Shown here in pieces: positions 1 through 35,463 of a stretch of DNA of 64,000 bases. The DNA is taken from positions 15,662,169 through 15,726,168 of the forward strand of contig NC_087072.1 of assembly GCF_026151205.1 (NCBI RefSeq). Reading direction: 5' to 3'. This DNA comes from Bolinopsis microptera (taxonomy: Eukaryota > Ctenophora > Tentaculata > Lobata > Bolinopsidae). A program made the position numbers and the translations under genes. Below the pieces are notes generated by a model. That model saw only the letters and a program-made list of their open reading frames with translations, was not told the origin of the DNA and searched no databases. How positions within the stretch are numbered: the first letter of the stretch is position 1; each line of letters begins with the position of its first letter.

Positions 1-1208
1 TTGTCTAGCACGCGCTAGCTGTGTCATTTTCTAGATATTGCCTATAGAGCCGAATGTTTATTAAAAAGTGGAGGCTTATCTTTTAACCTTTGCGGCTCAG
101 CTATCGGTGGCCCTTTTAGTAGTATCTCGAAGCTCAAGTGTAACGCGATTTATCCTTTAGCACACTCGATGTTTTAACCTTATCTAAAGGATTCATTACA
201 GCTTCTTAAATGACACGAGTGCATTAGTCTGAGGGTTGCGTCCCGAATTCGTCGTGATCATTATTCTCTTGGTCCTATGGTTACAATTCCATAGTATAAC
301 TTTAACCATAAATTCATGGTCATGATTGATGGCCAATGCTCTAACCATGTCTGCGGAACAGCCATTTGTTATGGTTATCAACCTCACTAATTTTAGGCTG
401 AGTTTAAATTAATCATAATATACAGAATTGAAAACGAAATAAAAACTGTGTAATTTGAGCTCTCGAATGCTAATATGTTTAACAGAGAGAATTGTTTTTG
501 GCTATTACCGTAGATGGACGAAAGAAGTAATTTTCTCAAAGTTGGTACAAGAAAATCTTCATGTTTCCAAAACTGGAAATATTCTTAATTCAAATAAAGT
601 TAAAAGCATAACTAAGACTCAAAACTGTAAATTTTTTCATTTAAAATTATGAAAATAAGTAATCAATCAATCAATTGAAGATGTAATTATCTATATTACA
701 TCAGCAGAAAATTCAAACAACATGATATGACACTGTATTTTAGAGAATAGTATGCCATCTGCAAAGCAAAAACTCTCAAATATAAAACACGGCGGAGATA
801 TAAGACCCAACGTGTGCACACTGACTTTTGGCCCACCCTGTATATTCACCTCTCACCTCGGTATGTACAGAGTCACAATATGAATAAATGGTAGAACAGC
901 CAACATAACAGCAGCATTAACAGGACAACAACATTAACAGGACAACAATAAAACTGGACTGCAATTAAACTGAACAACAATAAAACTGGACAACAATAAA
1001 CTTGGGCATTGACCTTTATAATGTCTAATGGTGAGCTTCTCCCACTTGGTTACATAAGCTAACATAGATACATAAAGTCAGTGCCGAAATTTTATTCGTG
1101 ATTAAAAATGCCACATCTGAGCAATTGTTCCTGTTCAATGTTCATGGATTGAGATTTGAGAAGGATGAACATTTAAAATTCATACTAAAGTATCATCTTG
1201 AATCTCGA
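1..1208. other. Non-coding AT-rich stretch, no gene seen
   Basis: No reading frame here looks coding. Around 900-1000 there is a short run of repeats built on the phrase acaacaataaaactgga. Around 820-842 the sequence ends in gcccaccctgtata, which resembles the terminal sequence of mariner-type transposons next to a TA, but no partner inverted repeat was found within the window. It may be downstream sequence of the receptor gene at 1209-2504 or an intron of HEATR1. Confidence 0.4.
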
Positions 1209-2504
1209 TCAAGCTGTCTCGTTAAAAGTAACTTTTGACATCTTTTTGTCCAAAGTAGGTGGTGCCTCCCTCACATCTCTATTGTTCAAACTTGTCTCAA
1301 CTCTTGACAATCTTCCATTCAGTACGCTGAGTTCTAGTCTTGAGTCTCTCTTGGGGACGACAGCACTCCCATTCGCGTCGGTTACAACAGAGTTCATATT
1401 CATTAATACAGTCCCACCTCCCTGGGAGGTCCTCGATGGCCTGCCCATACCAACTGAAGTGAATTCGGTAATTCTTCTCGACTTGTTCCTGATGGCTGCC
1501 TTGAGGGCTTTTCCTCTGACAATGAGGATGAGGGGATTAAAGGCAGCATTGACGAAGGGAGCAACAACACCCGTCAGAAACCTCCACATGTACTTCTTTT
1601 TCTCTTTGTCATAGAACGTTTCTGTATCGAAACCCTTCTCTTGGAAGATTTCACTACAGTGAGTAATAGGGTAGACCACGTAGACCGTGTTACATACGAA
1701 GAATAGCACTGTCATCATAAAAATTGTGATGGTGATGTCCCTCTGTACGTCCGTGTTGGTAGATTTCTCGGGCTGCATTTTCAGTAGTGTGTGTGACTGG
1801 ACCACCATACAGACAACCACTACGATAGAGGGAAAGAGATAGGGCAGACCGATAAACAGGGACACGTTCCTACATTCATTTTTCCGATGACCGGCACTTT
1901 CAGCTATTTGATACTGTCCTGGGCTGTAGAGGTATGCTTCATAGACGCTTCTATGCTGAGGTGCCTCTTCCAAGGAGATCTGGACCACTGTAAAGATAAT
2001 CCATCCCAGAATATAAACCGCGACAGCGATGACCCAGGCCCTGTTATTGATCCTGTAGAATGGTTGGATGATGTTGATGGTCCTGGCAGAAGCCACGGTC
2101 AGGTTAAGAAACACTGAGACCTTGAAAGTGACCGAGAATATGGCATAGGCCGGCAAAACAAGAGCTATGGAGGCCTCAGTGGAGTGTTTCTGTAGAAAGA
2201 GGGCCAGAGAGACAAGGAGAGCAGATATCGCTGTCAGCAGGTCAGTACTCGACACAAACAGGTACATCAAGGGCACAGTGTCTTTTCTCTTCTTGAAGTA
2301 GAAACTGATCACGAAGATGTTCAGAAGCAGAGCTTGAATTCCCAGACAGAGGTTAACTGTTGCCATCGTGTAAGTGAACCCGTCACCCAGATACCGTTTA
2401 GTGTCTGAAAAATCTGTGACTGGTGGAATCCATTCTGTTTGTGGATCTGGACTACCAGTGCCCAATGGACTAGTCACGGCAGGATTAGTTATATCCGTTA
2501 CCAT
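1209..2504 (-). CDS. Intronless seven-transmembrane (rhodopsin-like) receptor, paralogue 1
   Basis: Predicted plasma-membrane receptor of 431 residues from an ATG at 2504, with no intron. Seven hydrophobic segments lie near residues 46-70, 77-104, 113-138, 156-178, 214-238, 256-280 and 308-330, with a short extracellular N-terminus and a cytoplasmic tail of about 100 residues rich in Ser, Thr and Arg. TM7 carries NAAFNPLIL, a variant of the class A NPxxY motif lacking the Tyr. The DRY motif after TM3 is absent (SARTINIIQPFY instead), and TM6 has FFVCN rather than CWxP. The ligand is unknown. The gene at 8202-9254 encodes a clear relative: both share PFY after TM3, FPSI with VCMV in TM5 and CN in TM6. 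It may lie antisense inside a 5' intron of HEATR1, whose upstream exons were not found. The receptor class is a confident call; the subfamily is not recognised. Confidence 0.85.
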   Translation of the reverse strand: MVTDITNPAVTSPLGTGSPDPQTEWIPPVTDFSDTKRYLGDGFTYTMATVNLCLGIQALLLNIFVISFYFKKRKDTVPLMYLFVSSTDLLTAISALLVSLALFLQKHSTEASIALVLPAYAIFSVTFKVSVFLNLTVASARTINIIQPFYRINNRAWVIAVAVYILGWIIFTVVQISLEEAPQHRSVYEAYLYSPGQYQIAESAGHRKNECRNVSLFIGLPYLFPSIVVVVCMVVQSHTLLKMQPEKSTNTDVQRDITITIFMMTVLFFVCNTVYVVYPITHCSEIFQEKGFDTETFYDKEKKKYMWRFLTGVVAPFVNAAFNPLILIVRGKALKAAIRNKSRRITEFTSVGMGRPSRTSQGGGTVLMNMNSVVTDANGSAVVPKRDSRLELSVLNGRLSRVETSLNNRDVREAPPTLDKKMSKVTFNETA

Positions 2505-3624
2505 TTTCCTTTCCTGGGTAGAATAATTGTCAGATTAAAAGTCATATTACTCCAAGTGTTATCATTGCTAGTCAAACATCTAAAATTTCAAAATATACGA
2601 ACTCCGCAGTTGAGGTTGATTTGAGGGAACATTGTGTGCATGATACTATTTATCGTCCACGGTTTCAAGATTTGAAACGGTCGATTAGTAAGCGGTGATA
2701 CTATTGGCGACATTTTAATAAGTAATAAGTTTCGACTATATTGTAAATAAATATTGCATTAAAATCACAAACGGTCACGTCCGGTCACTAAGAAGTACAG
2801 TACTAATAATAATGCACTCCTTATTGAAATATTGTAATAAGTAATACGTTTTATCTATCTAAATTCAATATTGGATTTAAGTCACAAAAGAAAAAGCGCA
2901 GTGCAATTAGTGACTTTTAGATAAGTAATAAGTTTCAAATATCTTAATACAGTATTGCATTAAAATAACAAAAGGTCGCTAATAAGAAGTGCAGTTCAGG
3001 AAAATAATTCGATGACTTAATCTAGAACATAATCGTTAAATACATCATCGTATGTATGTTAAGGATGTTCATTCCAATTACATATTTTATGCTACGAAGA
3101 TCATCAGTCTCTGGAGAGTGAATACCGTTCATATTTTTAGCAACTCAGTATTGTTTTCAATCAAAAAAGGTAGGCGTGCGCGTTGTTGTTATTGTTGTTG
3201 TTGCTGTGACAACCACCAACCAGGATACACGATATTTAATCGAATACTTCCTGGTATAACTATGAGTTCACGCGGTAAGAAATGATCATTGGCTTGTGTA
3301 AAGACGAGAGGAAAATTAACAACTAGAACTTTAGAACTAGTAATTGCCCGACCTTCTTTTACTTTAGCGAAGGACCTTCACTACTGAACATGTAATGATG
3401 TACTGTTCTTAAGAAAATTATGCATAATTTTAATCACGAAAGGAAAATAAATACATAAAATTAAAAATACCCAGCCTTTCTATGGAAGCTCAATGTCCAT
3501 CAAGAATCACTACATTTTGTACCCATCTGCAACCTAAATCACAGAGAATCGTCACAGTCATTAGTCAAGTTATCAAATCTGGAAGTTATACTTATACTTA
3601 ACATACCAAGAGTAGGACTTTTGC
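2505..3624. other. Upstream region of receptor 1, no gene seen
   Basis: AT-rich sequence with partly repeated phrases (ataagtaataagttt and related forms near 2720, 2840 and 2930), suggesting an old degenerate tandem duplication, and a GTT-rich microsatellite near 3181-3210. It should contain the promoter of the receptor gene at 1209-2504, but no core element can be named with confidence. Confidence 0.35.
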
Positions 3625-4418
3625 CAGAGTTGAAAAATAGGTATTTAACGTATTTTATAAAATATCAAAAAAACTTTAAATACGGCGTATTTTATTTTCG
3701 CTGAATAAAATTCGTTAAAATACGTTACAAGTGATTTTGTAGCATTAAGAGCTCCAATGAAATAATAAGTACTATTTCTAATTATACAAGTTAAAAGTTT
3801 GATTAAAACTCGCGTATCTCTGTAGTTGATCACCTCGCGTATGATTTAAGGGAACTGTGCACGTGCTAAAGCGTACCAAAGCGTGCAAATACGAATTATT
3901 GCGCGCTAAAATTCTGAGCCTCGTCTGTAGTGCTTCTGCCTGTGAAACTAACTGGTCCTCTTGGGAATATATTGTTGATAAACGCAGAAATAGACTAGCA
4001 ACGGATAAGGCCATAAAGCTAGTAGGCATTAATGCCAACCTTCGACTTATCCAAAACATGGAGAAATGTGATTTCAATGATGATTACGATTCATCTGAGT
4101 AATTGTGTTCTTAATTGTGTATTTATTGAAACTTTTTTACGGACGATTTTCTACACAAATATGAATATTTTTCTGCGTTCAATTCCAAAAGTAAATTCCA
4201 ATCCCGTTCAAGGGAACAAAATAAATGAAATTGAATCGTAATGACGATGTGTCTGAAAAAATTGCGAACGAAAGACATAACTTATTAAGTTTTTGAATGC
4301 AATTACGAAAAAAATAGGCAAACGTATTTTAACGTATTTTTGACGTATTTTATTTCTAAGCAAAAAAACGTTAAATACGGCGTATTTAAAAAATTATCTC
4401 ACGTATTTTTCAACTCTG
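3625..4418 (+). mobile_element. Decayed hAT-family DNA transposon with transposase C-terminal remnant
   Basis: The ends are inverted repeats starting CAGAGTTGAAAAAT on the left and ending in its complement on the right, followed by AT-rich subterminal repeats built on aaatacggcgtattt. Flanks are acttttgc on the left and, two bases beyond the right end, tcttttgc, which may be an eroded 8-bp target duplication as expected of hAT elements. Inside, an 81-codon open frame (3857-4102) reads ACETNWSSWEYIVDKRRNRL followed by KLVGINANLRL. That matches the C-terminal dimerisation region of hAT transposases, with the usual Ser-rich stretch, the ERxWS-like motif, the KxRNRL motif and a terminal NLRL. The rest of the transposase is missing, so this is a non-autonomous deletion derivative. 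Confidence 0.7.
3857..4102 (+). pseudogene. hAT transposase C-terminal fragment
   Basis: Remnant of a transposase inside the element at 3625-4418. Residues about 27-65 of the open frame match the hAT dimerisation domain (WS motif, KRRNRL, NLRL). The first 25 residues are not convincingly conserved. There is no catalytic domain, so the product could not transpose DNA. Identification is from pattern recognition of the family and was not aligned. Confidence 0.6.
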
Positions 4419-6342
4419 AGTCTTTTGCCCTACGATAAAAACCACCATCTTATGGCTACGCTTAATTCAACGTGTAATATACACTGCAGAACATGTCCAT
4501 TGTCCTGTCCTCTGTCAACTTTGAGTTGTAAGCTTGACACAATGGTGCTGGGAACTGGTACACCAGCAGGGCGGGGGAGGAGCACCAGTTGCCAATTATA
4601 GAGTTATAGCTAAAGACTAGTCAGCTCCTCTTGAATAACAATGCAATTTGACTGGAGAAGTACTGGCATTTTAGGAACATAGACTTCGGTTCAATATCAA
4701 ATGGTGGATATATTATTATTAAACGTTAAGAATTTAAGATACAGGAAAATATTTATTCAACAGCGGCTGGATCTTCAGCCGGAGTGACTCCAAACTGAAG
4801 ATGCACAAAGTTAAGTTGTGCATTAATTATGCCACTCATTGCCATTATTGACCCTAACGACTGTTAAATTGATACCTCTTAGTTAACAAGAATACGAAGC
4901 ATCTGGTCACAGTATCATCTAATCGCCTTCTGGCTACAGAAACAAAATGCTCAATATACACTAAAATGAAAATGTTAAGTTGTGCATTAATTATGCCACT
5001 CATTGCCATTATTGACCCTAACGACTGTTAAATTGATCCCACATAGTCAGCAAAAATACATCTGGTCACAGCATCATCTAAATCTAAACGCTTTCCGGCC
5101 ACAAACATTCAACCACTACAAAATGCACATTCTAAAATGAAAATGCTTGCAAAATGCATTATATTATATTCAAAGTATCAAGATTACTTCCGGATGATTA
5201 CGAAATATACCCAAACTTTTCCGGGCCCGCAATCACCATTATGTCATCATCATAACACAGTGACAAAACATATCGTTCAATGTAAAAATGCAGTAGAGCG
5301 GCTGTCAAATACCGGCTGTGACCAGGTGCAGGGTTGTCAACTGGGCACTAGTAGGCGGGCCAGCAAGAACCGGTAAGGAATAAGGAAACCAGTATAACAC
5401 CACCCGGCTGGATGCTGCGTTTAATGACAGGTAGTATGCCAATAAATAGCTTGTATATGTCTGGTGGAGAGTAATGATTATTACAAATTAGTGGCAACTT
5501 GGCCGGAGCCAAAGTAAACCTAGGTATTGGGCATTTTCAGGCACCGGACTAAAGCTCTTGTCAGGGTGTTTAGGTCGAGTGGTGACTGTTAAAATTTGAC
5601 GGCCTGCAACGTCATAATAGTTTCTATACCAACCTTAATTTTCTATTAAAGTTTAGTCCAGACGTTTAGCGATCACAAAGGATCTTACGTGGCTAAGGCA
5701 AAAAACGAGAGTGATCCATCACAACCCATTATCGTCTATTGACTAAACAATCCTTAGTCGCTTCACGCCCGCAAAGGCTCTGCCTGCTGCCTGCTAATGA
5801 TGAACTTGCCAAAAAAGATTCTATTATTAACCGTAAAAGATAGCTTAAAGCTTGATCGTGAACTATAAACTCAACAGCGCAACATATAGCTTGCAATTAA
5901 CCGTGCAAAGATATAAAACAACTCTAATTAAATCAAAGCTTTTAATTATGCCCCTACTCATTTTTTGTAATTTATTTGGTGACTCTGAGCTCTAACAACT
6001 GACAAAACATCTGTACGTGCTTAGTCTAAATAAGCGCCGTTAGTCCAAATAAAAGTTTACTCCTCGAAAATTATAATTTTCAAACTGTCTGATGACGCTT
6101 AAAAGCCTTTCAGCTAGTCAGAATATGAATGAAAGGGAGACCTGAAGAAGAGCACTATTCATAGTCCAGACTGCACCAGATGCTAATGAAAGGGCCATCT
6201 AGGAACAACTTGTTAAAAACTTTTTTTCGGGGAGACTGTTTTAGCTCCATTTCCTCCGCAGCTGACGTCCATTAAATGAGTTTGTAACATAACAATTTGT
6301 TAACTTGTCAAAAACACAATGACAAACCTACTCTACCCTCAG
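4419..6342. other. Non-coding region upstream of the first recognised HEATR1 exon
   Basis: Holds the 164-bp tandem duplication near 4795-5130 and otherwise AT-rich sequence. A splice-donor-like site follows an open stretch near 5371 (aaccg then gtaagg), but the encoded residues do not resemble HEATR1 and the exon is not called. If HEATR1 is intact its earlier exons lie here or beyond the left edge. None was recognised. Confidence 0.35.
4795..5135. repeat. 164-bp tandem duplication, two copies
   Basis: The phrase gttaagttgtgcattaatta and about 75 following bases occur at 4810 and again at 4974, exactly 164 bp apart. Later parts of each copy (catctggtcacag, catctaa, ctaaaatgaaaatg) also match with small indels. 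No coding potential. Confidence 0.75.
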
Positions 6343-9300
6343 GGAGCAGCGAATGACGAGTTAGCTACCACCCTGTTCGAAATACTGCCAACTCAAAAGG
6401 GCAGCGAGGAGGATATAGTGACCCTGTTAACAACCGTGTGCACTAAACTGGGAAATGAAACACCCCTCACACCCACCGCGCTCCGGGCTATCGTGGACGT
6501 GATCCGGGAAACTAACAAAGAAACACACCGACACGCACTCCACCACGGCTGTATCGTTCTGCTGTCCAAACTCGCTGCTCACTTTCCTGTCCTGGTCCTG
6601 GATCATGTGATCGCTATCTTTACATTTATGGGTGACAGCACGATGCGAATGGATGACAACTATTCTATACAGGTAGGAGACTGGCGGCCTGTCTTTGATA
6701 AGTTAGTTTTGATTGTTGCTGTGGTGTGTAATGAAGGTTTTAATTATATTATCTTCTCAGTGAAATGACATTTTAAACGATGCCTACTTTAAAATATATA
6801 GTTCATCAACTGGGATAATTGACAATTAGTTACGCCTTGTAACACAATTGTAATAATAATATATCATAGTTTATAGCTTTTAAGCAGTCGCTGTGATTAA
6901 ACCAGAGAACTGCGAACTCTCTTTTTATCATCGTGTTCGGTCCATCGTTACAGTACTTTAAAAGTACTGAGTACAACGATACACTATTCATATTATTTAT
7001 TTATCAATCACTGATACATCAACCCTGTCAGGTTCTGATTGAAGCTATCGGCACTATAGTTCCGGTTATCAAACAGAAAAAGGACATGATGAGCATTTTG
7101 AGGGTGTTCTGTGACACGCTACCCCACATTCCCTCCCACCGGGCAGATCCTATTTTTACTCTTCTGCTGGAAACATCTGGTCCTCAATATCTGTATCACG
7201 TGTTTGTTTTCGTGTTGGAACTATGCAGCAGGTCAGTAATGATCCGTCGGATCATGAGCATGTGTTTTATATGTGCAGCTCCTGTTTATAATATCAAAAG
7301 AAACTCATAATCTCATAATGAGTTCAATGTATGTTAGTTAACAACATCATACTAACTGGCTAGTGTTCTGAAAATAGTTCAAGGACAGAGCTACCATCAC
7401 AGTTTTCTAAAATCCCTTCAGAATCTTACTGAATCTTTTTCAGGGACCGAGAGCTAGCATCCCAGTTTTCCTACTTCCTTCAGAACCTCACTATCCATTT
7501 CGGCCTATCTGATCTTTTAGGAACCTCTGTTGGACTCATTAAAACACTAGCAGCATTGCCGGATAAACTGACGAAAATGGTTTGCTGCATAAAATAAAAA
7601 CGTTTTGAGAATTGAGTAATTTCTAATTTAAAAGAAAGGTAAATCAACATTTTACGTCTATTGGGTATGCTTATTGCTTAACCGTATCGGATATCGGGAT
7701 TCTGATTTATCTTGATTTTCAGACTGGTAAGACACACAAAGTTCGCTTGGACAGTGGAGTTGATCTTAGCTTCAACGATACGAAGCATTATCATTACTTC
7801 AAACTTGGTCTGGCAACGCAACTTTACTTGCTCACCACCAACAAGCACTTCACCGGTAATGATATTCATAAAGCTCCCGATAAAAACATTTTGGGACATG
7901 TCCTAACTCTTAAGTCGCACAAAAAAAATTAATTCAGCATACGGTTAACCATTTATTAATAAATAATGATTTGTGAAAGCACTCGACGTATCACCGATTA
8001 GTAAAAAAGAAAGCTTATAATATAACAATACAAAAATGGTTTTTCATCAACGACGTTTATGAAGGAGCACTTAGCTAAAAAACACCTGTTACGTACAGTA
8101 GACCAATTGAACAAATCTTGAGTCCTTTAACTAGACATATTTCCAAATCATATGTCACACATTTACGTCGAACCATTTAATTGACATTTTAAATACTGGT
8201 GATGAACTCGACGGAGAGTAATGGAACTGAGATCTTGACTCCTGATGAGCCTGAAAAAATGATGGAGAGTCTATTCATGTACATTGCACCATTCAATCTA
8301 GTCTTGGCTGTCATTGTCCTCTTCCTTAACTCTACAATCCAAAGAGACTACTTTAGAGACAGAAAACTGCCTGCCACCTTTTTGTTCATGATCATAGCGG
8401 CTGCAGACATATTATTTGCCACTGCAGACATATACAGGAGCTCGACCGCATTAGTCTGCACGCAGCGTCATGATGCTTCGTTTCCAGCTTGGTTTACAAT
8501 GTCTTACGTCACTATAGGCTTCTGGGGTTACAACCTTTCAATATTTGCCAATGTAGTGCTTGTGGTTGTCAAGTCAGTAAATTTGTCAGCACCATTTTAT
8601 CAGCTGGAACAATGGACGATTGCCGTAGCTGTTGTAGTCGGCGGAATATTTTGGGCTTGTCTAAGCGTTACAGATGCAATATTTTTCGCAGGAAACAACA
8701 ATTTCACTTCCTTCGGCTGTAAGGAGCAATGGGAAATTTTGGAACACTACGATTTCGTTGGTACTGGAATAGCATCCGAATTTGACCCAGTTAATTCTCT
8801 CTTCATATCGAAAACGCTGGCTGTGGCTGAATATGTTTTTCCGAGTATCATAGTTTTAGTCTGCATGGTGATACAAATGGCTGCTATTAGGAAAACTCTG
8901 GGGTCCACGAGCAAGGAAATTGCCAATGAAGTTAATCTGACGGTGTTCTTAGTATCCGCTGTGTACTTCATATGCAACAGTGCTTACGGCATATTCTTCC
9001 TGACAGAGTACACCCTTCAAAGGAAAAACACATTGAGTATTGAATTCTTGATGAAACACACTCTACCCCTGTTAAACGCAGCTCTATTTCCAATCATTTT
9101 GATTTGTAGAAAAAAATCTCTGAGAACCCAGTATCTTGGTTATTGGGCTGCTGCCCTCGGCCTTCCAAAAAAGCTTCGCCGTGGAGCAGTGAAAAGGAGC
9201 AAAGATGGTCAGCAATACGATGCTGTGGCAAAGGTTGAGTCTGACTCTGATTAGGAAGACGTACCTAGCGACTGTAATATAGATTATAGAGCGTTTGACC

Positions 9301-12300
9301 AACGTATTTTATGGACTGAATGTATTTTAAAACATGCGAACAGTTGATTTTGATTCTGATTTAATGCGTATACAATCTGGATTTTATACGCCACTTTTAC
9401 TTTTAAGCTTGAAACTACATAATTTGTCATAAATCACTTAAATGTATTAATCAGGTCGATTTTAAATTCTTTTAGCTAAATTAGATCTTTTTCATTTGCC
9501 TTTATCTGTTTCTTACGTCATCGCAGTCTTACAAAGCTGTAATAAAAATAAATAATAATGTTTCTCATCGTCGTGGATAGAATGAGGCATAGTTTTAAGT
9601 TTATTTCCCCGCAAACTGACATTATATTACATGCAGCCATCTTAAATTCGGGAATTCCAAAAAATAAAGATATTAGATATTACAAAATCAGAAAATTCGA
9701 ATGGATTCTGTAATCCGTGCCAATCAAATCTTTTAGTTGAAAACTCTTCCCATCTCTAATTTAACCGACTGATAACTAAAACTTTTTGCATTTTTTAAGA
9801 AAGACAATTTTTATTTTCTCTGATGATTGCTCCAAAAGAAAATTTTGTGAGTACCTTGATGGCAGATATCAAAATATTGTAGAGAAAACTATAATCTACA
9901 TAATCTCTTCAGGATTGTTATCTGATTTCGAGAAAGATAAGGGTGACGAACAGAAGCTAGCGGAACTGATAGAACTGTCTCTTTCCATCATGATACATTA
10001 CCAAGATTCTCATGGGGACAAGTTTGTTGATATGCTCAACAAACGGTTAACTGGTAAGAAAAGTTTCGTTGTTTCTTGACACCAATGGCGTATAATCCGA
10101 TACATCACTCGCGAAGCTCTACAGCAATGCTCGTAAAACTCATATTATATTATGGGTATATTATGTAATGATTTGACCAATGGCTGAAATGGTTTAGACT
10201 TTATGGAGAAGATCTAGGCATAAGACTACTGAAAAAAAATAATGCACTATCAGCAGAAAACGGCACTGAAGCATTAACCAAAAACATAATCAAAGGTTAG
10301 CGAACCCCAAATGTGAACAGTAAAACGTAACTACTCCCTATTACTAGTGAGCTGAGTTTTGATTTACTATTTGTCGAAAGCAATGATCTGTGATTAGTTT
10401 AATAAATAGACAAAATACCCCCATTCCATGGAGCACCCACTGTGCCATGATACATTAGCTCAGACTTACTCCACTGACAATATCTAAATATGGACAAAAT
10501 TAAACGGTACCGAACTAAAATACGAAAATAGGGAGCACAAGGTTCCGGTCATATGAAATTAAAATGAAATTATGTAGACTGAGAACTCAGAACAGATATA
10601 CTGCAACTGGTTACTGTTTATACTTTTATATAAACAAACTTAATGATACCGTCGCTGCCCCTACAGCCAGAATTGCACATAATTTCGAAGCAATGATGTT
10701 ATCGCCAGATCATGAGGACTTAATCTTCCGCCCAGTTATTGCGACAACAGCCGATCGATTAAACCCTAAATGACGTCCTAGCAGGATTTAACATGTACGA
10801 ACCAATTTTGGAAGACTGTAATTTCTTGTCAGATAGCGTCATGCTGTGCGTTAGGTATTATGTCGCCCAAATCATTCGCAATAATCTGACAAATATGTGC
10901 TACCCCGGCCCGGTGTACTCATCATTTCTATCCTGTAATTTGCACCAACTGAGCAACTCAAGGCGAACTAATGAGATGAACTGTTGTAAATCTTGAATTT
11001 TCCTTGAGGCAGTCAGCCGAAAAAACAATGTTGGTTAAATTGATTAAAAGATATTAGATCATGGGGTTCATAGTACTTTCAGAATGCATCCTAAATGAAC
11101 CTGGAAATAGAAAAATGATGACTTGATGAAAACTATATTCCCTAAACTCATTTAAAGGACCCGATTTCAAAAAGTTGCCGTTATTTTACTCTAATTGTTT
11201 CCAGTATTTAAGAAGTGGTCTCTCATGCCCTGGGTGCTGGGAATGGATAATTTAATTTTGTGTTATCATAGAAAGTTATGTTTTATAACCAGATTAATTA
11301 AAGTTTTGTGATCTTGCAGGAGTGACAACAAGTGTCACAGCTGGACTACCTTCGTCTCTCTTCATCTCCGTTGTGAGAGCTCTCCTCTCCACCGACACCT
11401 CCCTCCTACACGACAAGTCCCTCAACATGCTTCTAAACAGGGTCAAAGGTTTGTGCTGCCGAACATTGTGCTGCCATGTTAGAAAACCGCGAGACAGAAA
11501 AAACACTATAAGTGTGAGGCTCAGACTTAGTGAAATATTTAGGACTTGGACAAAATATGGATAAATGTTAATTGAAACAGGTTAACTAAATATATGGGAA
11601 ACAAAGTGAATAATTATTGTACAAACGGATCCTAACCAAGAATAACTTCAGGCGAGAGTGGTTGGACGGTGGAGCTGGAGGAGAACACAGTGTCCTTACT
11701 GGACACTCTCCTTAAACTAGCTCAATCTCACAGCTTAACATGGAAAGTTCTAGACCTGCTCGTCAAGAAAATAGGTAAGTTAACATATTCGATCATGTAT
11801 CATCGCGGGCTCCTCCAGTTTAACTTTAAACTGATTGAGTGATTAACTTTTAACTGATATCAGCCCGACAAAATGCCGCTCAAAACCGAATATAGATGAA
11901 TCGTCCTTGAAAAAGCAGAGACTTAAATACTGTCTTAAAATATTCCCCGCAAGTGGGGGGTGGGGGTGACCCTTAGACCTGACGGGATTAAGTTTCGGGA
12001 CTAAGATTTCGCCGGATCGATAATTTCCAACCAGATTGAACCGGAACGGAGGAGAAATAAAATATGTCTCTAATTTGTAGCTAGGTGATAATATGTAGCT
12101 TTAAATGATTTAACACAACGTAGTAACTAACCTATAAGAACAGCCAAATTCCCTCTCAGGCTAACTAACTTAAACGCCATAAATGTAACAATTAGCACAA
12201 CCAGGCCAACACAGATTATACGGCAGTGTTTCACAAAGTGGATCCATATCTCTGATATCACAGGTTCGGAAGACATCCAATTCAAAGTAATTCAGACAAT

Positions 12301-15300
12301 CAGACGCGATGCTACTTTGAGTAGTACTCAGATGGTAGTTTACAATTAAGAGCAATGGATGCGAGTGAAACTTATTTACTAGTCTAGTCAAGTAGTCATG
12401 ATTTCCCGTGGCTCCTACCCTCAGAATAACAAATGTGTGGGACCGGGAAACTTTGGGTGCTTAGTCGACGTTCACCGGTCCCTGGTGGTCACAACAATGT
12501 AAGAAAAGCACCTGATTGTGTGACGAGGTCGAACGCATTAAAAACCGTCCCCTCTGCAGAGTAGGTAATTACTGATAAATACTGACCACCTGCGAAAAGA
12601 AGATCCAAATAAACGACTTATATAAACTTTTACCTATTTTGTAAAATGCAGATCCTAGTCGAGACAGGACCCGGATTCTAAGACATTAACCAAGTAAAAC
12701 GGCCAGCTGCAGTTGTCACATGTCAGCGTACGGTGCCAGCCGACGCTTCACGGCACAATTTAATAATCGCATACTCTAACGGTTCGAACGTGCATGCTTA
12801 CCCGGTCCTAATCTCTATGATCTCTATAATCTCTATTTGATAATTTAAGCAAAAATTACTGTTAATGATTTTATCTTATTGGAATTCATGGAGTGCTGCC
12901 AGCTGCTCAATCTGATTCGTGATTAGGCTGTAATTCTACAAGAGCGTCCATCAATATGAAGTCATCGATCTTTATTAAGGTCGTGGGTAGAACATGACAC
13001 ATGGCTGTTGAGATCGTTAAGAAATCGGGTAAAATTGCACGATCAAACACATTTTATTTCAAATGAAACCGCGATTATCCGCTTATTGTCTATTGATTCG
13101 TGTAGAAAAAACAAAACCCAATTCAAATTATGTTAAATGCGAACTGATTTAGATTCTAGCGAGTCGGAAATTTGGTTGGGATGATTACCGTGCTCCTGGT
13201 AACGTTTACAGATGCACATGGTAGATAGTCGGTATATGCATATGGTCGGTTAACTTTTGAAGGTCGACTTACTCACGTGCGGCTTGAAAATTCACATTTT
13301 AATAGACTAATATGTCACGTAGAGACCCAAAAATGTCATCCAAAAGAATTTATCAACTGAAACCAACTGAAGTATCCTTACAGGTTCCAAGTACCCTGAA
13401 GAGTTTGTTAAAGTGCTCGGCGCAGCTGCGACTCATCTTGGCAACAACCCAAGTGATGAGCTCCGGAAATGTATTTGCACGTGTTTGGAAGTGCTGAGTG
13501 TCCGGTGTGTCGCGCATTTGCCGGATCTTGTGAAGATCTCTATTGGGAATCTACAGGATAACAGTGCGGTTTTGTCGGCCGTCATTTCAACTGTTCCTCA
13601 GTTCACCTCTGCTTACATATCCGACATTCTTGTCGCTATGTCCAAGGTGAGTTTATCGTAAATATTACTCGGACAGTGTTCCAGCTTTGGTTGTTTATAT
13701 GTTTGAAACAATGATGTTCGCGAATTTTGGGATTTGATTTTTGCCTGAATTTTTAAAGTCACTGTTTATTATTTCAGGTTTACAGTGATAATTTATCAAA
13801 ACTGAGTGCTGAAATTGGGGGTGGAATTAAGTTAAGGGTCCTTCTTCCTGCTGTGATAAACGCAATCGACACACTACTCGACTCATCTGCTCATGGTGAA
13901 TATATTATGTTGAAATGATAAAACAATCCCAACAATATATGAAATATTTATCATTATATTATTATCAAAAGAGAAAAATATTATCATTCGAGAAGGATAC
14001 AAAACCTTGTTATATTCATTACTATTAGTTTATAGCTATACTAGGCCAGCGAATTAGCATAGACTGTTTAAATGGTTAATTATTAATTAATTATCATCAA
14101 TAATGATATTTGTTGGCTCTCCACCCATTTGGGCCTTGTCATGGCAAAAAAGGCGGGCTTTAATAATTTGATTGCCCATTTATCTCCTACATCCACGTAA
14201 TATAACTGTGGAATTGGATTAAACATAAGTATGAAGCTTATAAACATAGCCTATAAGCATAGTGGATGTCAAAACTAATTGTATAGGTTACCAGATTAGG
14301 CTACTCAATGCTTATCGAAATTGAAACGCCAAAAGAAATTATCAATTACTACGTATGATCAAAGGGGCGCACTAAAACATATTTAATTTTAATTGTCTGT
14401 AACATCAACTTCAGACCTGCGCGCAGTAACGGACACGCTGAGGAAGTGTATTGAGCAGAACGTGACTCATGACATCAAGAACCAAGTTACTGATATCAAC
14501 ACCATCTTCGTGAAGTTACTATCCTACAGGGATACAACCACCAGGTCAGTTAGGGGGAGTGAGAGTAGTTACTATCCTACAGGGATACAACCACCAGGTC
14601 AGTTAGGGGGAGTGAGAGTAGTTACTATCCTACAGAGATACAACCACCAGGTTAGTTAGGGGGAGTGAGAGTAGTTACTGTCCTACAGAGATACAACCAC
14701 CAGGTCAGTAAGGGGGAGTGAGAGTAGTTACTATCCTACAGAGATACAACCACCAGGTTAGTTAGGGGGAGTGAGAGTAGTTGCTATCCTACAGAGATAC
14801 AACCACCAGGTCAGTTAGGGTGAGTGAGAGTAGTTACTATCCTACAGGGATACAACCACCAGGTTAGTTAGGGGGAGTGAGAGTAGTTGCTATCCTACAG
14901 GGATACAACCACCAGGTCAGTAAGGGGGAGTGAGAGTAGTTACTATCCTACAGAGATACAACCACCAGGTTAGTTAGGGGGAGTGAGAGTAGTTGCTATC
15001 CTACAGGGATACAACCACCAGGTTAGTTAGGGGGAGTGAGAGTAGTTGCTATCCTACAGGGATACAACCACCAGGTTAGTTAGGGGGAGTGAGAGTAGTT
15101 ACTATCCTACAGAGATACAACCACCAGGTTAGTTAGGGGGAGTGAGAGTAGTTGCTATCCTACAGGGATACAACCACCAGGTCAGTTAGGGTGAGTGAGA
15201 GTAGTTACTATCCTACAGAGATACAACCACCAGGTCAGTTAGGGTGAGTGAGAGTAGTTACTATCCTACAGGGATACAACCACCAGGTTAGTTAGGGGGA

Positions 15301-18300
15301 TTGAGAGTAGTTACTATCCTACAGGGATACAACCACCAGGTCAGTAAGGGGGAGTGAGAGTAGTTACTATCCTACAGAGATACAACCACCAGGTTAGTTA
15401 GGGGGAGTGAGAGTAGTTGCTATCCTACAGGGATACAACCACCAGGTTAGTTAGGGTGAGTGAGAGTAGCTACTATCCTACAGGGATACAACCACCAGGT
15501 TAGTTAGGGGGAGTGAGAGTAGTTGCTATCCTACAGAGATACAACCACCAGGTCAGTTAGGGGGAGTAAGAGTAGTTGCTATCCTACAGGGATACAACCA
15601 CCAGGTCAGTAAGGGGGAGTGAGAGTAGTTACTATCCTACAGAGATACAACCACCAGGTTAGTTAGGGGGAGTGAGAGTAGTTGCTATCCTACAGAGATA
15701 CAACCACCAGGTTAGTTAGGGGGAGTGAGAGTAGTTACTATCCTACAGAGATACAACCACCAGGTCAGTAAGGGGGAGTGAGAGTAGTTACTATCCTACA
15801 GAGATACAACCACCAGGTTAGTTAGGGGGAGTGAGAGTAGTTGCTATCCTACAGGGATACAACCACCAGGTTAGTTAGGGTGAGTGAGAGTAGCTACTAT
15901 CCTACAGGGATACAACCACCAGGTTAGTTAGGGGGAGTGAGAGTAGTTGCTATCCTACAGAGATACAACCACCAGGTCAGTTAGGGGGAGTGAGAGTAGT
16001 TGCTATCCTACAGAGATACAACCACCAGGTCAGTAAGGGGGAGTGAGAGTAGTTACTATCCTACAGAGATACAACCACCAGGTTAGTTAGGGGGAGTGAG
16101 AGTAGTTACTATCCTACAGGGATACAACCACCAGGTCAGTAAGGGGGAGTGAGAGTAGTTACTATCCTACAGAGATACAACCACCAGGTTAGTTAGGGGG
16201 AGTGAGAGTAGTTGCTATCCTACAGAGATACAACCACCAGGTTAGTTAGGGGGAGTGAGAGTAGTTACTATCCTACAGAGATACAACCACCAGGTCAGTA
16301 AGGGGGAGTGAGAGTAGTTACTATCCTACAGAGATACAACCACCAGGTTAGTTAGGGGGAGTGAGAGTAGTTGCTATCCTACAGGGATACAACCACCAGG
16401 TTAGTTAGGGTGAGTGAGAGTAGCTACTATCCTACAGGGATACAACCACCAGGTTAGTTAGGGGGAGTGAGAGTAGTTGCTATCCTACAGAGATACAACC
16501 ACCAGGTCAGTTAGGGGGAGTGAGAGTAGTTGCTATCCTACAGAGATACAACCACCAGGTCAGTAAGGGGGAGTGAGAGTAGTTACTATCCTACAGAGAT
16601 ACAACCACCAGGTTAGTTAGGGGGAGTGAGAGTAGTTACTATCCTACAGGGATACAACCACCAGGTCAGTAAGGGGGAGTGAGAGTAGTTACTATCCTAC
16701 AGAGATACAACCACCAGGTTAGTTAGGGGGAGTGAGAGTAGTTGCTATCCTACAGGGATACAACCACCAGGTTAGTTAGGGTGAGTGAGAGTAGCTACTA
16801 TCCTACAGGGATACAACCACCAGGTTAGTTAGGGGGAGTGAGAGTAGTTGCTATCCTACAGAGATACAACCACCAGGTCAGTTAGGGGGAGTGAGAGTAG
16901 TTGCTATCCTACAGGGATACAACCACCAGGTCAGTAAGGGGGAGTGAGAGTAGTTACTATCCTACAGAGATACAACCACCAGGTTAGTTAGGGGGAGTGA
17001 GAGTAGTTGCTATCCTACAGAGATACAACCACCAGGTTAGTTAGGGGGAGTGAGAGTAGTTACTATCCTACAGAGATACTACCACCAGGTCAGTAAGGGG
17101 GAGTGAGAGTAGTTACTATCCTACAGAGATACAACCACCAGGTTAGTTAGGGGGAGTGAGAGTAGTTACTATCCTACAGAGATACAACCACCAGGTCAGT
17201 AAGGGGGAGTGAGAGTAGTTACTATCCTACAGAGATACAACCACCAGGTTAGTTAGGGGGAGTGAGAGTAGTTGCTATCCTACAGGGATACAACCACCAG
17301 GTTAGTTAGGGGGAGTGAGAGTAGTTACTATCCTACAGGGATACAACCACCAGGTCAGTTAGGGGGAGTGAGAGTAGTTACTATCCTACAGAGATACAAC
17401 CACCAGGTCAGTTAGGGGGAGTGAGAGTAGTTGTTAAAACACACCCCCTTCTTAAACATGATCAAACATTTTACCGAAAAAAATATTCATAATCGTTTTT
17501 TAAAAAGATGTATATCTTTAATGACGCCCCCCTTTCAGCTTCACTCAAGAAACGGAGGACGAGGTAATATCATGTTTTGTTGGGCTGGTGTACAAGCTAA
17601 CTGAGAAGGAGTTCCTTCCTCTGCTAGTGAGATTACTCGAGTGGTCTAACGGGTCTCTGGAGAGGAGCATTACTTTCTACAACCTTTCTGCTCATCTCTC
17701 AGATAAACTTCAGGTCGGTCAACTCTCCTCCATTACACCGTACACTATTAAATTGCTGTTATCCCGGGAATTTGTCTTAACTATCTTTCGACTTCTTAAT
17801 ATGACAGGCATTTTTTCGTAATACTTTGAATGTATGGAATCCTTGTGTTATTATAATACATGATAGGACGAGGAATGAGGATTCATACCTTTTTGACCTA
17901 CTGTATAGTAATAACATAGTAATACTGCATGTACTTTAATAACGTATTATTGACAGGGACTGTTTTTATTGTTTAGTGGTTCGATCTACCTCAATCTTGT
18001 GGAAAAGCTTCAACAATGCAAACCTCCTGTTCAAACCGAAGGTAAGATTAAGCATTTGAACATTCTCTGCATTTTTCGTTAATAATACAATTACGAAATC
18101 TTTGCTTATTGCTACTAAAACTAAAATAATAATTTATGAAGTCTAACATGAAAATAATCCCATCAATAACAATTATCACCTGTAGCTCAACACTCAACAG
18201 CAATAAATCAACAGCTACTACAAATTATAACATCACTATAAATTATATTAATATTAACTAAACTTGATTATCTTAATATTATTCTCCACTTGGGCCAAAG

Positions 18301-21300
18301 TTATTCTCATCCAACTCAAAATTTCCTATCAAGGGATCGGCAATTTCATTATTTTGCAACGACTGCCCTCTGTCAACTCTCACCTCATCGATAGGCCGAC
18401 CGTTTTTCAGCTGACTAGACTGTCTTATAAATGTCTCTGATGCCCTTCTCATTAACCGTATCATGTCCACCTCTGACCTGGTATTTTGCTTCATAATCTT
18501 ACAAGTATCCTCCACCAGCTGCTTGGACACTAAGTTAGCATAGTAGTTCCTCAACCCCATCAGCTCATCATGTGTACCTCTCTCCTTTACCTCCCCATCC
18601 TTTAAACAGATAATCTCATCTGCGTGCCGTATTGTGCTCAGTCTGTGGGCTATCACTATGGTTGTTTTCCCTGCCATTAACTTATCCAGTGCTTCCTGGA
18701 CATCTCTCTCGTTCTGTGCATCCAGGGCTGAGGTTGCCTCGTCCAATATCAAGATCTCTGGATCTCTCATCGCTGCTCTGGCTATGGCTATCCTCTGTTT
18801 TTGTCCTCCTGAAAGCTGTAAACCACGTGCTCCTGCAAACGTCTCCATTCCACTACGAAACTTGTTAATAAAATCACAATTTGCTAACTCAGCCGCGTTT
18901 TTAATTCTGCTATTGGTGACTTGATCTGGAAATACTGCACCGTAGGAGATGTTATCCATTAGGGTGGTGCTCATAAGGTTGGGGTTCTGACTCACAATCG
19001 CCATCTTCCCATGCAGCTCTGCCAAATTAAAGTTCCTGATATCCTTGCCACCAATAGTTACCTTGCCTTGTTGTGGGTCGTATAGTCTCATTAATAGCTT
19101 GGCAATCGTTGTCTTACCACTGCCAGAATCACCCACGATTGCTGTCATCTTCTTGCGCTGGATTTTCAGGTTTAACCCTGAAAAAACTTTCTCACCGATC
19201 CGGGTGGGGTACCCAAAGTTAACATTTTCAAACTGTATATCCTCCTCCAGTGAACCTACTGTATCTTTGCCGGAAACCACCTCAGAAGGTGTTGACATGA
19301 ACTCCACATAATTTTCTACCTTTGATAAGTCTTCTTCAAAAAGCTCTATTTGAGAGTTTAGACACGTAAACTGATGTTGAAACCTATCAAACAAGATGTA
19401 AAATATCATGAACTCTCCGGGCCTAAAAACAGATTCCACGGCTGTTGCTTCGTAAGCAATCATTAAAGCTAACAAAAGATATTTAAAAGCATGTTCAACA
19501 AATTCATTCTGGATTCTATTGAGCACAAGCTTCAGTTCACATGAAATCCAGCTACTTTCTGCCACTTTCTGTTCCTTGATGTGAAGTTTCTCTTGGGAGA
19601 ATTGCTTTACAGTCGATACCATGTCCAGAGCCTCGTTAATAAGATCCTCTGCAGAAGAAGCTAGTTTAGTCCGACAACGCTGTAACCTCATCGCCTCCCT
19701 CTTTCCTGGCATAAGATAGAGAATGTTAAAAAGTATTGTGAATAAAACTACAGCTCCTCCGATTTGAAGGTTCTTTTTCACCATGTAGACTCCACTCGCA
19801 AATATTCCCAGAAGATGGGCCAAAGCGTAGGGGAAATTCCAACTTATCAAACGGGAGACAGAATGAATGTTGCTATTATTATTCAGATCAGCTAGAGTGT
19901 GAGAGTCATGATATCCTTGGTGCAAGAACAGCGCTTTCTCCAGAGATTTCGTCCTCAAAGCTCCCATAATTCCGTACAGTCCGCGAATGTGAATATAAAC
20001 ATTTCCAAGGTACACTAACCGCTCTAACAGTACCATCAACACAAAACTAACCAACATTGACTTGATATAATCGAACCTGCTGTCCTGATTACACTCCAAA
20101 AAGGTTCGACAGAGAGTGTTAGCATAGATATTCTGGTTGATAACTGTAGTGTTGTCGGACAAAGTTGAGATGATATTCCCAGTTAAGTTTAAAATCTCTA
20201 ATTCCAGAACTTTGCTGCATATGACCATCACGGTTACAACAATCATTCTAATCGTGTCTCGTTTGGTTAGGAGAGCTTTAGAGACTGCTGAGAGGACAGC
20301 TGGTATTGATAGTTTGGTAGTGTGCTCCTTCATGTTGAGGTATATCCCCCTTTCCTCGGCTACTGAGATCAGGTGGGCTGTCATATTAGCAGATCCGGTC
20401 TTGTTAAGGATAACGTTCTGTTTGGTATCAAGATACAGCGCCCCGCGCCCTGCCTTCATACTACACCTGGCAATGATCTCCTTCCACCAGTTTGCTGCTT
20501 CTTGTCGGTCCGAGAACTCTTTAATTTCCACATCCTCCTCCTTAGTACCCAGATAGATCACATTAAACCAATCTTTATCAGCCGTACTCTCCTCACCACA
20601 AGGCTGCTGCTCAAACCCGATTAACTTGCCAGACTTTATCTTCAACGAAAGTATCTCCATCCCATCATCAGCTGTTATTGTGGTCCGTTTGTGTTTGGGT
20701 GTTCTCGAGCACACAGGCTCGAAGGAGAAGGTCCTGCCTCGGCTGGTCTCCAGTTCTAGTGCTGCTCCTGCCCATCTCCTGTTCTCCAGTGTTTCGTGTG
20801 TTACTCGTGCCTGATTTGGATGTAGTTCTGTTTTAGAAAGTGTCCGCAACACATCAAATTAAGTTGCTCAATACTGTCGAATACTATGTGTTGCTAGCGG
20901 AAAATTTCAATAGGTCAATCAGAAATTATATTCTGTATTCTTTAACCGGAATATTAATTATGAGAGCCCATAGAAATAAAACAGTAAAATAAAATTTGCA
21001 TACCAAATATTCATTTTCGGAGAAAACGATTGTCTTTCCGCGAGATTTCCCCCCTCCTAGACCATAGGACCACACGCTGTCATCATCGTATGTAATTATG
21101 ATACTGTCAATTACTTTTACACCTGCACATATTTATGCGTTATGATCATCCCGTACGCGTAAATCATTTTCTCGGCAATTTGGAAAAATGGAAATCTAAC
21201 AAACAATGAATTTAATGAATTGACAAGCAAGCATTTAACGTAACACACAGAGTGCAAACCTTGAACTTCTATTTTTCTGATCCGATACTCCGCTTTAATT

Positions 21301-34600: not shown

Positions 34601-34990
34601 ACCGCACAAAGCTCCATACAACCTCTCACCACTTTAACAACACGACGTGACACCCTGGCCATTCAAACTAGCTACAATTCCTCTAAATACCACCAAATGG
34701 CCCTCTCCCTTCCAACAAAGAGTCCTGGACAGGGTTCTGGTTCACAACAGAGCTGCTGAGAGCACCATGTAATAGTGGAGAACAAAACGCCAGGGCCCAC
34801 AACAATACAGAATGGCTCTCCCTCCCTAGTGAGAATAATACATGTTGCTTAGAACCTGTGAGCTCCCCAGGCTGCACACACTAGGATCGATTACCGGCCT
34901 ATAAAACGAGAAAGGCGAAGTGTTTTTCCTGCAGGCAGATGTGGCAGGTTAATAGATGTGTACGTATAGACGGAGATGAGAGTCCCGAGG

Positions 34991-35019
<29 letters not shown>

Positions 35020-35021
<2 letters not shown>

Positions 35022-35366
35022 GGAGGGAGGGAGGGAGGGAGGGAGGGAGGGAGGGAGGGAGGGAGGGAGGGAGGGAGGGAGGGAGGGAGGGAGGGAGGGA
35101 GGGAGGGAGGGAGGGAGGGAGGGAGGGAGGGAGGGAGGGAGGGAGGGAGGGAGGGAGGGAGGGAGGGAGGGAGGGAGGGAGGGAGGGAGGGAGGGAGGGA
35201 GGGAGGGAGGGAGGGAGGGAGGGAGGGAGGGAGGGAGGGAGGGAGGGAGGGAGGGAGGGAGGGAGGGAGGGAGGGAGGGAGGGAGGGAGGGAGGGAGGGA
35301 GGGAGGGAGGGAGGGAGGGAGGGAGGGAGGGAGGGAGGGAGGGAGGGAGGGAGGGAGGGAGGGAGG

Positions 35367-35463
<97 letters not shown>
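35020..35463 (+). repeat. Long (GGGA)n tract followed by (GA)n
   Basis: About 88 uninterrupted gggagggagg units (35020-35371) followed by about 46 GA units (35371-35463), with a short GA run before them (about 34990-35020). The tract is pure purine on the plus strand. Open frames across it on both strands are an artefact of the 4-bp and 2-bp periodicity. Confidence 0.98.

What the first reader, a model, noticed from the sequence alone, without database searches (positions are those of the whole stretch)
14514..17433. A splice donor and a possible 15-nt micro-exon are copied 55 times in a HEATR1 intron
Seen directly: the 53-bp unit spans the true end of the exon 14415-14544 and its donor, and the donor gt recurs at exactly 54 periods (14545 to 17407). 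Each unit also has ctatcctacag before the 15 bases GATACAACCACCAG with a leading G or A. If that AG is used as acceptor, each unit is a 15-nt exon that keeps frame (it enters and leaves in phase 2) and adds Arg-Asp-Thr-Thr-Thr. The common G/A variant keeps Arg (AGG or AGA). Inference: the cell must choose one donor among 55, or could include variable numbers of RDTTT repeats, a potential length switch in an essential ribosome-assembly protein. The constant unit length suggests recent or homogenised expansion.
Basis: partly seen in the sequence, partly recalled or inferred. Interest (0 to 1): 0.85.

Follow-up and report, generated by a model that had tools for sequence, protein, structure and literature searches.

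The report
Splice-donor minisatellite ("mirage") in ctenophore HEATR1
A comb-jelly ribosome-assembly gene carries 55 tandem copies of the end of one exon with its splice site, a kind of repeat known from amphioxus; similar arrays occur in several other genes of this animal, and most likely only the first copy is used.

Summary
55 head-to-tail copies of a 53-bp unit (14514-17428, plus 4 bases) carry the last 31 bases of a HEATR1/UTP10 exon and the first 22 of its intron. All 55 keep the donor GT, the CTACAG before the 15-base block, and RDTTT coding. The genome fits Bolinopsis microptera, a ctenophore. Splicing from donor 1 to 17539 gives the conserved protein; donors 2-55 all give a premature stop. 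All 54 possible 15-nt micro-exons keep frame and their acceptors score like those of gene models, so inclusion is possible but nothing shows it. The structure matches amphioxus "mirages", minisatellites spanning an exon-intron boundary, which reportedly do not disturb regular splicing. I found six more donor-spanning arrays in this genome, one of them weak. Tandem triples of GGTAAGT outnumber five scrambled motifs (6114 matches versus 66-1276), but in 200 kb sampled from C1 donor-spanning arrays were no commoner than random placement predicts (2 versus 1.06). All five variable exon-part sites are synonymous (P about 0.001, post hoc); this is unexplained. Best reading: a tolerated intronic minisatellite, a new member of a known kind.

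The parts
14415..14544 (+). HEATR1 exon (phase 2 at both ends), ending ..FVKLLSYRDTTT|S; its last 31 bases are unit 1 of the array
   Evidence: gene model; alignment to human HEATR1 across the junction; BP28CT
14514..17428 (+). 55 tandem copies of a 53-bp unit: 31 exon-derived plus 22 intron-derived bases; TRF extends it to 17432 by a 4-base AGTT
14545..14550 (+). donor 1 (GTCAGT), the only one of 55 whose use keeps HEATR1 open into the next exons
14598..17412 (+). 54 further donor copies, one every 53 bp (GT at 14598 to 17407), all GTYAGT
14583..17406 (+). 54 potential in-frame 15-nt micro-exons after CTACAG (first 14583-14597, last 17392-17406), each RDTTT; use not shown
14514..14517 (+). 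AGTT at the exon side of the unit; repeated as AGTT at 17429-17432 after the last unit: a 4-base microhomology, candidate site of the founding duplication
17433..17538 (+). unique 3' part of the intron with acceptor CCCCCCTTTCAG; one other AG in it, at 17506-17507
17539..17713 (+). next HEATR1 exon, FTQETEDEVISCFVGLVYKL.., BP28CT domain
   Evidence: (BP28CT 6.2e-14)
17957..18041 (+). following HEATR1 exon, GLFLLFSGSIYLNLVEKL..

Best explanation
It is an intronic minisatellite whose founding duplication happened to span an exon-intron boundary (a 'mirage'). A 53-bp stretch (31 exon + 22 intron bases), bounded by the 4-base direct repeat AGTT, was duplicated head to tail (inferred) and then expanded and homogenised in multi-unit blocks (shown by the 10-unit order repeat in part of the array). 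Each extra copy carries a donor and a coincidental acceptor-like CTACAG that is really HEATR1 coding sequence. Because the extra copies lie behind donor 1, the exon is still complete and still followed by its own donor. The spliceosome most likely joins donor 1 (14545) to the acceptor at 17539 and removes the array as intron (inferred). Transcripts using donors 2-55 would be frameshifted or stopped (shown by translation) and probably degraded. The array is largely neutral apart from splicing noise.
For: Only donor 1 of 55 keeps the frame. The donor 1-to-17539 protein aligns with human HEATR1 across the junction and passes BP28CT. Edge microhomology AGTT. Block homogenisation. The same anatomy at other donors of unrelated genes in this genome: activin-receptor-like L024, a Sushi gene, a dynein heavy chain, LMF1 and a membrane-protein-like exon, and a weaker 2.1-copy case in L023. 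In 200 kb fetched from C1, donor-spanning arrays are no commoner than random placement predicts (2 of 79 observed, 1.06 expected, 56 of 200 placements reach 2). Amphioxus mirages have the same anatomy and are reported not to interfere with regular splicing (PMC3087553 passages; PMC3902484 passage).
Against: No RNA was examined. Array acceptors score at the median of 14 gene-model acceptors (1.53 against 1.66), and only 179 of 3347 other AGs in the window score as well (generic matrix), so inclusion is not ruled out by sequence. All five variable exon-part sites are synonymous and all 55 donors are intact, which a purely neutral array need not show (P 0.0013 by mutation class, post hoc). The excess of GGTAAGT triples over scrambled motifs suggests that donor arrays may be more than random landings.
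Confidence: 0.76

Rival explanations
1. Some units are spliced in as 15-nt micro-exons, so HEATR1 transcripts carry a variable number of RDTTT repeats in a loop at the start of the C-terminal BP28CT region; occasional noise or a real isoform set.
For: 54 of 54 units keep frame and 55 of 55 read RDTTT. Acceptors and donors score within the range of gene-model sites. My simple gene finder, allowed introns of 45 nt or more, chose twenty-five 15-nt exons downstream of unit 1. The insertion point is a length-variable loop: human HEATR1 has 4 more residues there, and a version with three extra repeats scores BP28CT slightly higher (79.5 against 76.8 bits). Variable sites are all synonymous.
Against: A 15-nt exon is hard to define (general knowledge). 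Adjacent units would leave 38-nt introns, far below the 131-2994 nt of the seven introns of my gene model. Three of the five synonymous sites (unit positions 3, 5, 8) lie outside the micro-exon, so its coding use would not explain them. The gene-finder path entered the array in the wrong frame. Amphioxus counterparts are reported to be spliced normally.
Confidence: 0.16
2. The many donors matter as a sink: competing U1 sites or use of later donors lower the yield of productive HEATR1 mRNA, so array length tunes expression.
For: 55 near-identical donors, and no donor after the first leaves the frame open. In human IFI6 two downstream repeat units of a minisatellite are used as donors (PMC4526556 passage).
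Against: HEATR1 is essential in model organisms (recalled, not searched), so strong loss should be selected against, yet the array is long. No expression or population data were available.
Confidence: 0.05
3. The copy number is partly an assembly error (collapsed or expanded repeat).
For: Long homogeneous arrays are prone to this (general knowledge). The array was found at one place only in the genome (22 scored matches, all inside it).
Against: 20 unit types in an ordered pattern with clean unique flanks, and independent arrays of the same kind elsewhere in the assembly. Even if the number is off, the structure stands.
Confidence: 0.03

Closest known systems
Amphioxus 'mirages' (minisatellite-like duplications of exon-intron boundaries: Adh3, globins BflGb6 and BflGb9, PGBD5, troponin C)
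   Same: Tandem units span a true exon-intron boundary, many carry AG/GT signals, and units are homogenised inside the cluster (PMC3087553 and PMC3902484, passages only).
   Different: A ctenophore, not a cephalochordate. 55 copies here against 6 and 3 reported for the two BflGb6 haplotypes. The unit happens to hold an in-frame micro-exon with usable-looking sites. Splicing and polymorphism are untested here.
Human IFI6 (6-16) minisatellite giving multiple splice donors (Turri, Cuin and Porter 1995; seen only as a citation with a one-sentence description in PMC4526556)
   Same: A minisatellite at an exon end offers several donors.
   Different: In IFI6 two downstream repeat units are reported as used donors that give isoforms. 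Here use of any donor after the first breaks the reading frame, and only micro-exons would be coding.
Intron gain by tandem duplication of AGGT-containing exon segments (Rogers model; fission-yeast 24-bp repeats, ATP2A1, potato RdRp; PMC4974935 passages)
   Same: Tandem duplication multiplies splice signals taken from exon sequence.
   Different: No new intron need have been made; an intron boundary was duplicated inside what looks like an ordinary intron. Whether this intron is ancient was not tested.

Membership tests
Mirage (exon-intron-boundary minisatellite) | tandem unit spans a real exon-intron boundary | tested here: met
   31 exon + 22 intron bases; exon end supported by HEATR1 homology
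Mirage (exon-intron-boundary minisatellite) | copies carry splice signals | tested here: met
   donor GT 55 of 55, CTACAG 55 of 55
Mirage (exon-intron-boundary minisatellite) | minisatellite-size unit (10-160 bp reported in amphioxus) | tested here: met
   53 bp; range from a passage of PMC3087553
Mirage (exon-intron-boundary minisatellite) | concerted evolution inside the cluster, edges left out | tested here: inconclusive
   10-unit block repeats in the centre; the unit-1 type recurs only at units 2 and 54, near the two edges
Mirage (exon-intron-boundary minisatellite) | length polymorphism between haplotypes | not testable with these tools
   one assembly; the array was found at one place only
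Mirage (exon-intron-boundary minisatellite) | regular mRNA splicing not disturbed | not testable with these tools
   no RNA data; only the frame analysis
IFI6-type alternative-donor minisatellite | downstream repeat donors give coding isoforms | tested here: not met
   of 55 donors only donor 1 is open to 18041
Rogers-type intron gain | intron absent before the duplication | not tested
   no related ctenophore or annotated outgroup gene structure was compared

The most novel reading that the evidence does not exclude
This ctenophore turns splice donors into tandem arrays on a genome-wide scale. In HEATR1 the copies are not dead: some are spliced as true 15-nt micro-exons that extend a loop with RDTTT repeats, and coding use plus exchange with exon copy 1 explains why every exon-part variant is synonymous.
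Probability: 0.09. Interest if true: 0.85.

Novelty: new member of a known kind. Interest (0 to 1): 0.5.

Why it matters
Mirages were described as possibly a general cephalochordate phenomenon (PMC3087553 passage). Seven donor-spanning arrays (one weak) in a genome that fits a ctenophore show that the process is not confined to chordates. They also give a natural test of a splicing question: how does the spliceosome pick the first of many near-identical donors 28-67 bp apart? The synonymous-only variation in HEATR1 is a concrete, testable oddity. Such arrays are proposed raw material for new introns, and existing long-read cDNA for this species could settle the question.

Tried and rejected
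Free alternative donor use as a coding switch: rejected, only donor 1 keeps the frame. Larger internal exons from an acceptor in one unit to a donor in the same or a later unit (up to 11 units on): only same-unit pairs are open, 54 of 54. Array as coding in another frame: each of the six frames has 66-84 stops. Structured RNA: no Rfam family reached its gathering score in the window. 'Donors are hotspots' from the C1 sample: not supported (2 against 1.06 expected). Synonymous-only pattern as a general property of such arrays: not borne out. Judged by eye, in the activin-receptor-like array 1 of 4 substitution sites is synonymous and one copy has lost its donor (copies, frame). In the Sushi array 1 of 3 is synonymous among the rows listed, which do not cover every copy; one further A/G site and length changes in its G run were left out because their alignment to the exon is ambiguous. 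Fisher 5/5 against 2/7, p 0.027 (numbers entered by hand).

Not reached: the 1995 IFI6 paper, the 2002 Adh3 paper and PMC343271 are not in the library. None of the ten paper searches listed a mirage in a ctenophore; that is absence from the listings of one open-licence library, not proof. GGTGAGT and acceptor-type genome counts were asked for and not answered.
Full report
WHAT IS THERE. Tandem Repeats Finder reports 14514-17432, period 53, 55.1 copies, no indels. Read in register there are 55 full units, with 10 of 53 positions variable and 20 unit types. The unit holds the last 31 bases of an exon and the first 22 of its intron. Donor GT is present in 55 of 55 units, from 14545 to 17407; CTACAG precedes the 15-base block in 55 of 55; the block reads RDTTT in 55 of 55.

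THE GENE. Exons 14415-14544, 17539-17713 and 17957-18041, joined, match human HEATR1 (PDB 7mq8) with the alignment running across the junction. With a selection of predicted upstream exons the match is E 6.8e-36, followed by fungal UTP10 entries (that they are fungal is recalled). Pfam BP28CT is met at 2.1e-21. At the junction human HEATR1 has four more residues, so the site is a length-variable loop.

THE ORGANISM. The genome has 264,652,675 bases in 232 contigs. C1-C13 are 15.2-26.2 Mb and C14 is already below 0.2 Mb; C1 has 26,206,493 (which looked at C1-C20 and C25 only, C1 known). A published table gives Bolinopsis microptera as 265 Mb, 13 chromosomes, largest 26.2 Mb, GC 38.5% (PMC11797021, passages); the window's GC is close to that. 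The table's scaffold count, 346, differs from 232. I take the genome to be B. microptera by this match, not by sequence comparison.

SPLICING LOGIC. I translated the transcript for each of the 55 donors joined to 17539. Only donor 1 stays open to 18041; donors 2 and 3 shift the frame into a stop, and from donor 4 on a stop lies in the retained array. Exons from an acceptor in unit j to a donor in unit k (k up to j+11) are open only when j = k: 54 of 54. The micro-exon idea is therefore coherent in frame. Array donors score 3.4-3.6, inside the range of eight gene-model donors, 0.95-5.41. A simple gene finder, allowed 45-nt introns, even threaded twenty-five 15-nt exons through the array, but it entered in a wrong frame. 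Against inclusion: neighbouring units would leave a 38-nt intron, while the seven introns of my gene model are 131-2994 nt. No RNA evidence was available.

ORIGIN. AGTT stands at the exon end of the unit and again right after the last unit, a microhomology fitting a slippage or template-switch duplication (inference). An 11-unit string occurs at units 22 and 32, and unit types autocorrelate at lag 10 (2 of 5000 shuffles reach this), so growth went by blocks of units. The unit-1 type is found at units 1, 2 and 54, near the two edges.

IT IS NOT ALONE. In 20 pieces of 10 kb fetched from C1 (three beside the window, the others at round coordinates), I searched tandem arrays for a predicted exon that ends at a donor inside the first unit. 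Of 91 arrays in those pieces plus the window, the three best scores were L023 (67 bp, 2.1 copies), the HEATR1 array, and L024 (28/31 bp, 30 copies). L024 sits at an activin-receptor-like exon (Pfam Activin_recp 3.2e-4 for the joined protein). L023 is weaker: a good exon score but only a sub-threshold galectin hint, E 0.019. A genome search for three GGTAAGT spaced by 20-50 bases listed its first places only, 10 loci; I read the edges of 7. Three were donor-spanning. One is a Sushi gene: the exon alone scores Sushi at E 0.0026, below the cut-off; joined with the next exon E 5.6e-9, best stretch in the next exon. One is a dynein heavy chain: PDB match E 8.8e-9 across the junction, no Pfam hit. 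One is a membrane-protein-like exon on the strand opposite to the motif, with no Pfam hit. A fourth, at an LMF1 exon (E 3.2e-28), lay beside a listed array that is not itself donor-spanning. The other three loci were a dispersed 40-bp family (two loci) and a family in a zinc-finger-like gene (read by eye). In all I hold seven donor-spanning arrays, one of them weak.

ENRICHED OR NOT. Two results pull apart. In the 20 pieces, 2 of 79 arrays span a predicted donor and 0 an acceptor; random placement of the same arrays gives 1.06 and 1.51 on average, and 56 of 200 placements reach two donors. So the sample shows no excess. Genome-wide, GGTAAGT triples number 6114, against 66 for the reversed motif, 1276 and 845, and 794 and 788 (repeated) for other motifs of the same composition. 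Matches are not arrays: one array gives many. In the listed rows I count 6 families in the first 2.25 Mb of C1 for GGTAAGT, 4 in 21.4 Mb for GAGTATG, and about 10 over most of C1-C5 for TGGATAG, which one dispersed family dominates. The GGTAAGT rows all come from one chromosome end, the tool warns that repeat counts can be lower bounds, and only 2 of the 6 GGTAAGT families (Sushi, dynein) have the motif as the likely donor on that strand. I read this as suggestive of a real excess, not as proof.

THE ODD POINT. All five variable sites in the exon-derived 31 bases are synonymous in HEATR1: positions 3, 5 and 8 (Leu), 17 (Arg), 23 (Thr). Of all 93 single changes 23 are synonymous. Given the mutation classes seen, with unit 1 taken as ancestral, the chance of five of five is 0.0013. 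The test was chosen after looking. In the activin-receptor-like array 1 of 4 substitution sites is synonymous and one copy has lost its donor; in the Sushi array 1 of 3 among the listed rows, an ambiguous G-run site left out; 5/5 against 2/7 gives p 0.027. Micro-exon coding would not explain positions 3, 5 and 8, which lie upstream of the micro-exon. Exchange with exon copy 1, where selection acts, would explain shared variants but hardly the two singletons (positions 8 and 23). It may be chance.

COMPARISON WITH WHAT IS KNOWN. [quoted passage not shown] PMC3902484, passage). The human IFI6 minisatellite supplies extra donors that are used (PMC4526556, passage; the original paper was not held). 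Fission-yeast genes with multiple 24-bp AGGT duplicates have introns across them (PMC4974935, passage). The HEATR1 array meets the three sequence features of a mirage that I could test conclusively; the edge pattern is inconclusive, and splicing and polymorphism remain untested.

VERDICT. A real, striking but probably tolerated intronic minisatellite; a new member of a known kind, outside chordates, and one of several in its genome. Normal splicing from donor 1 is the best bet. The micro-exon reading is alive but unproven, and public long-read cDNA can decide it.

Noticed in passing
L024:8101-8987 (G000:C1:13008101-13008987): Donor-spanning array of about 30 copies of a 28/31-bp unit at the end of an activin-receptor-like ectodomain exon; most copies keep GTAAGT, one has lost the donor.
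   Followed up: yes
L049/L050 (C1:428575-430927), L053/L054 (C1:885212), L052 (C1:36576), L056 (C1:1290200-1291500): Further donor-spanning arrays in a Sushi gene, a dynein heavy chain, a membrane-protein-like exon and LMF1; LMF1 also has a 14-bp array in the intron just before the same exon's acceptor.
   Followed up: partly
window 8193-9254 (+): Intronless 353-aa GPCR-like open frame nested inside a HEATR1 intron of my gene model, same strand; no Pfam hit, resemblance by eye only.
   Followed up: no
window 1209-2534 (-): Intronless 441-aa rhodopsin-family receptor frame (7tm_1, E 3.1e-10).
   Followed up: no
window 18279-20858 (-): Intronless 859-aa ABC transporter frame just downstream of the HEATR1 exons on the other strand (ABC_tran E 2.7e-31).
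   Followed up: no
window 34987-35461: GAGG tetranucleotide array, about 119 copies, 98% matches.
   Followed up: no
L012:7200-9999 (C1:1007200 onward): 51-bp array of about 55 copies reaching the end of the fetched piece; the unit is a multiple of three and might be coding.
   Followed up: no
G000, many loci: A dispersed element with TGGATAGCGACAATTATCGAACATATATATTTTGCGCTGG, often in inverted pairs about 0.3-6 kb apart, like the ends of a DNA transposon.
   Followed up: no
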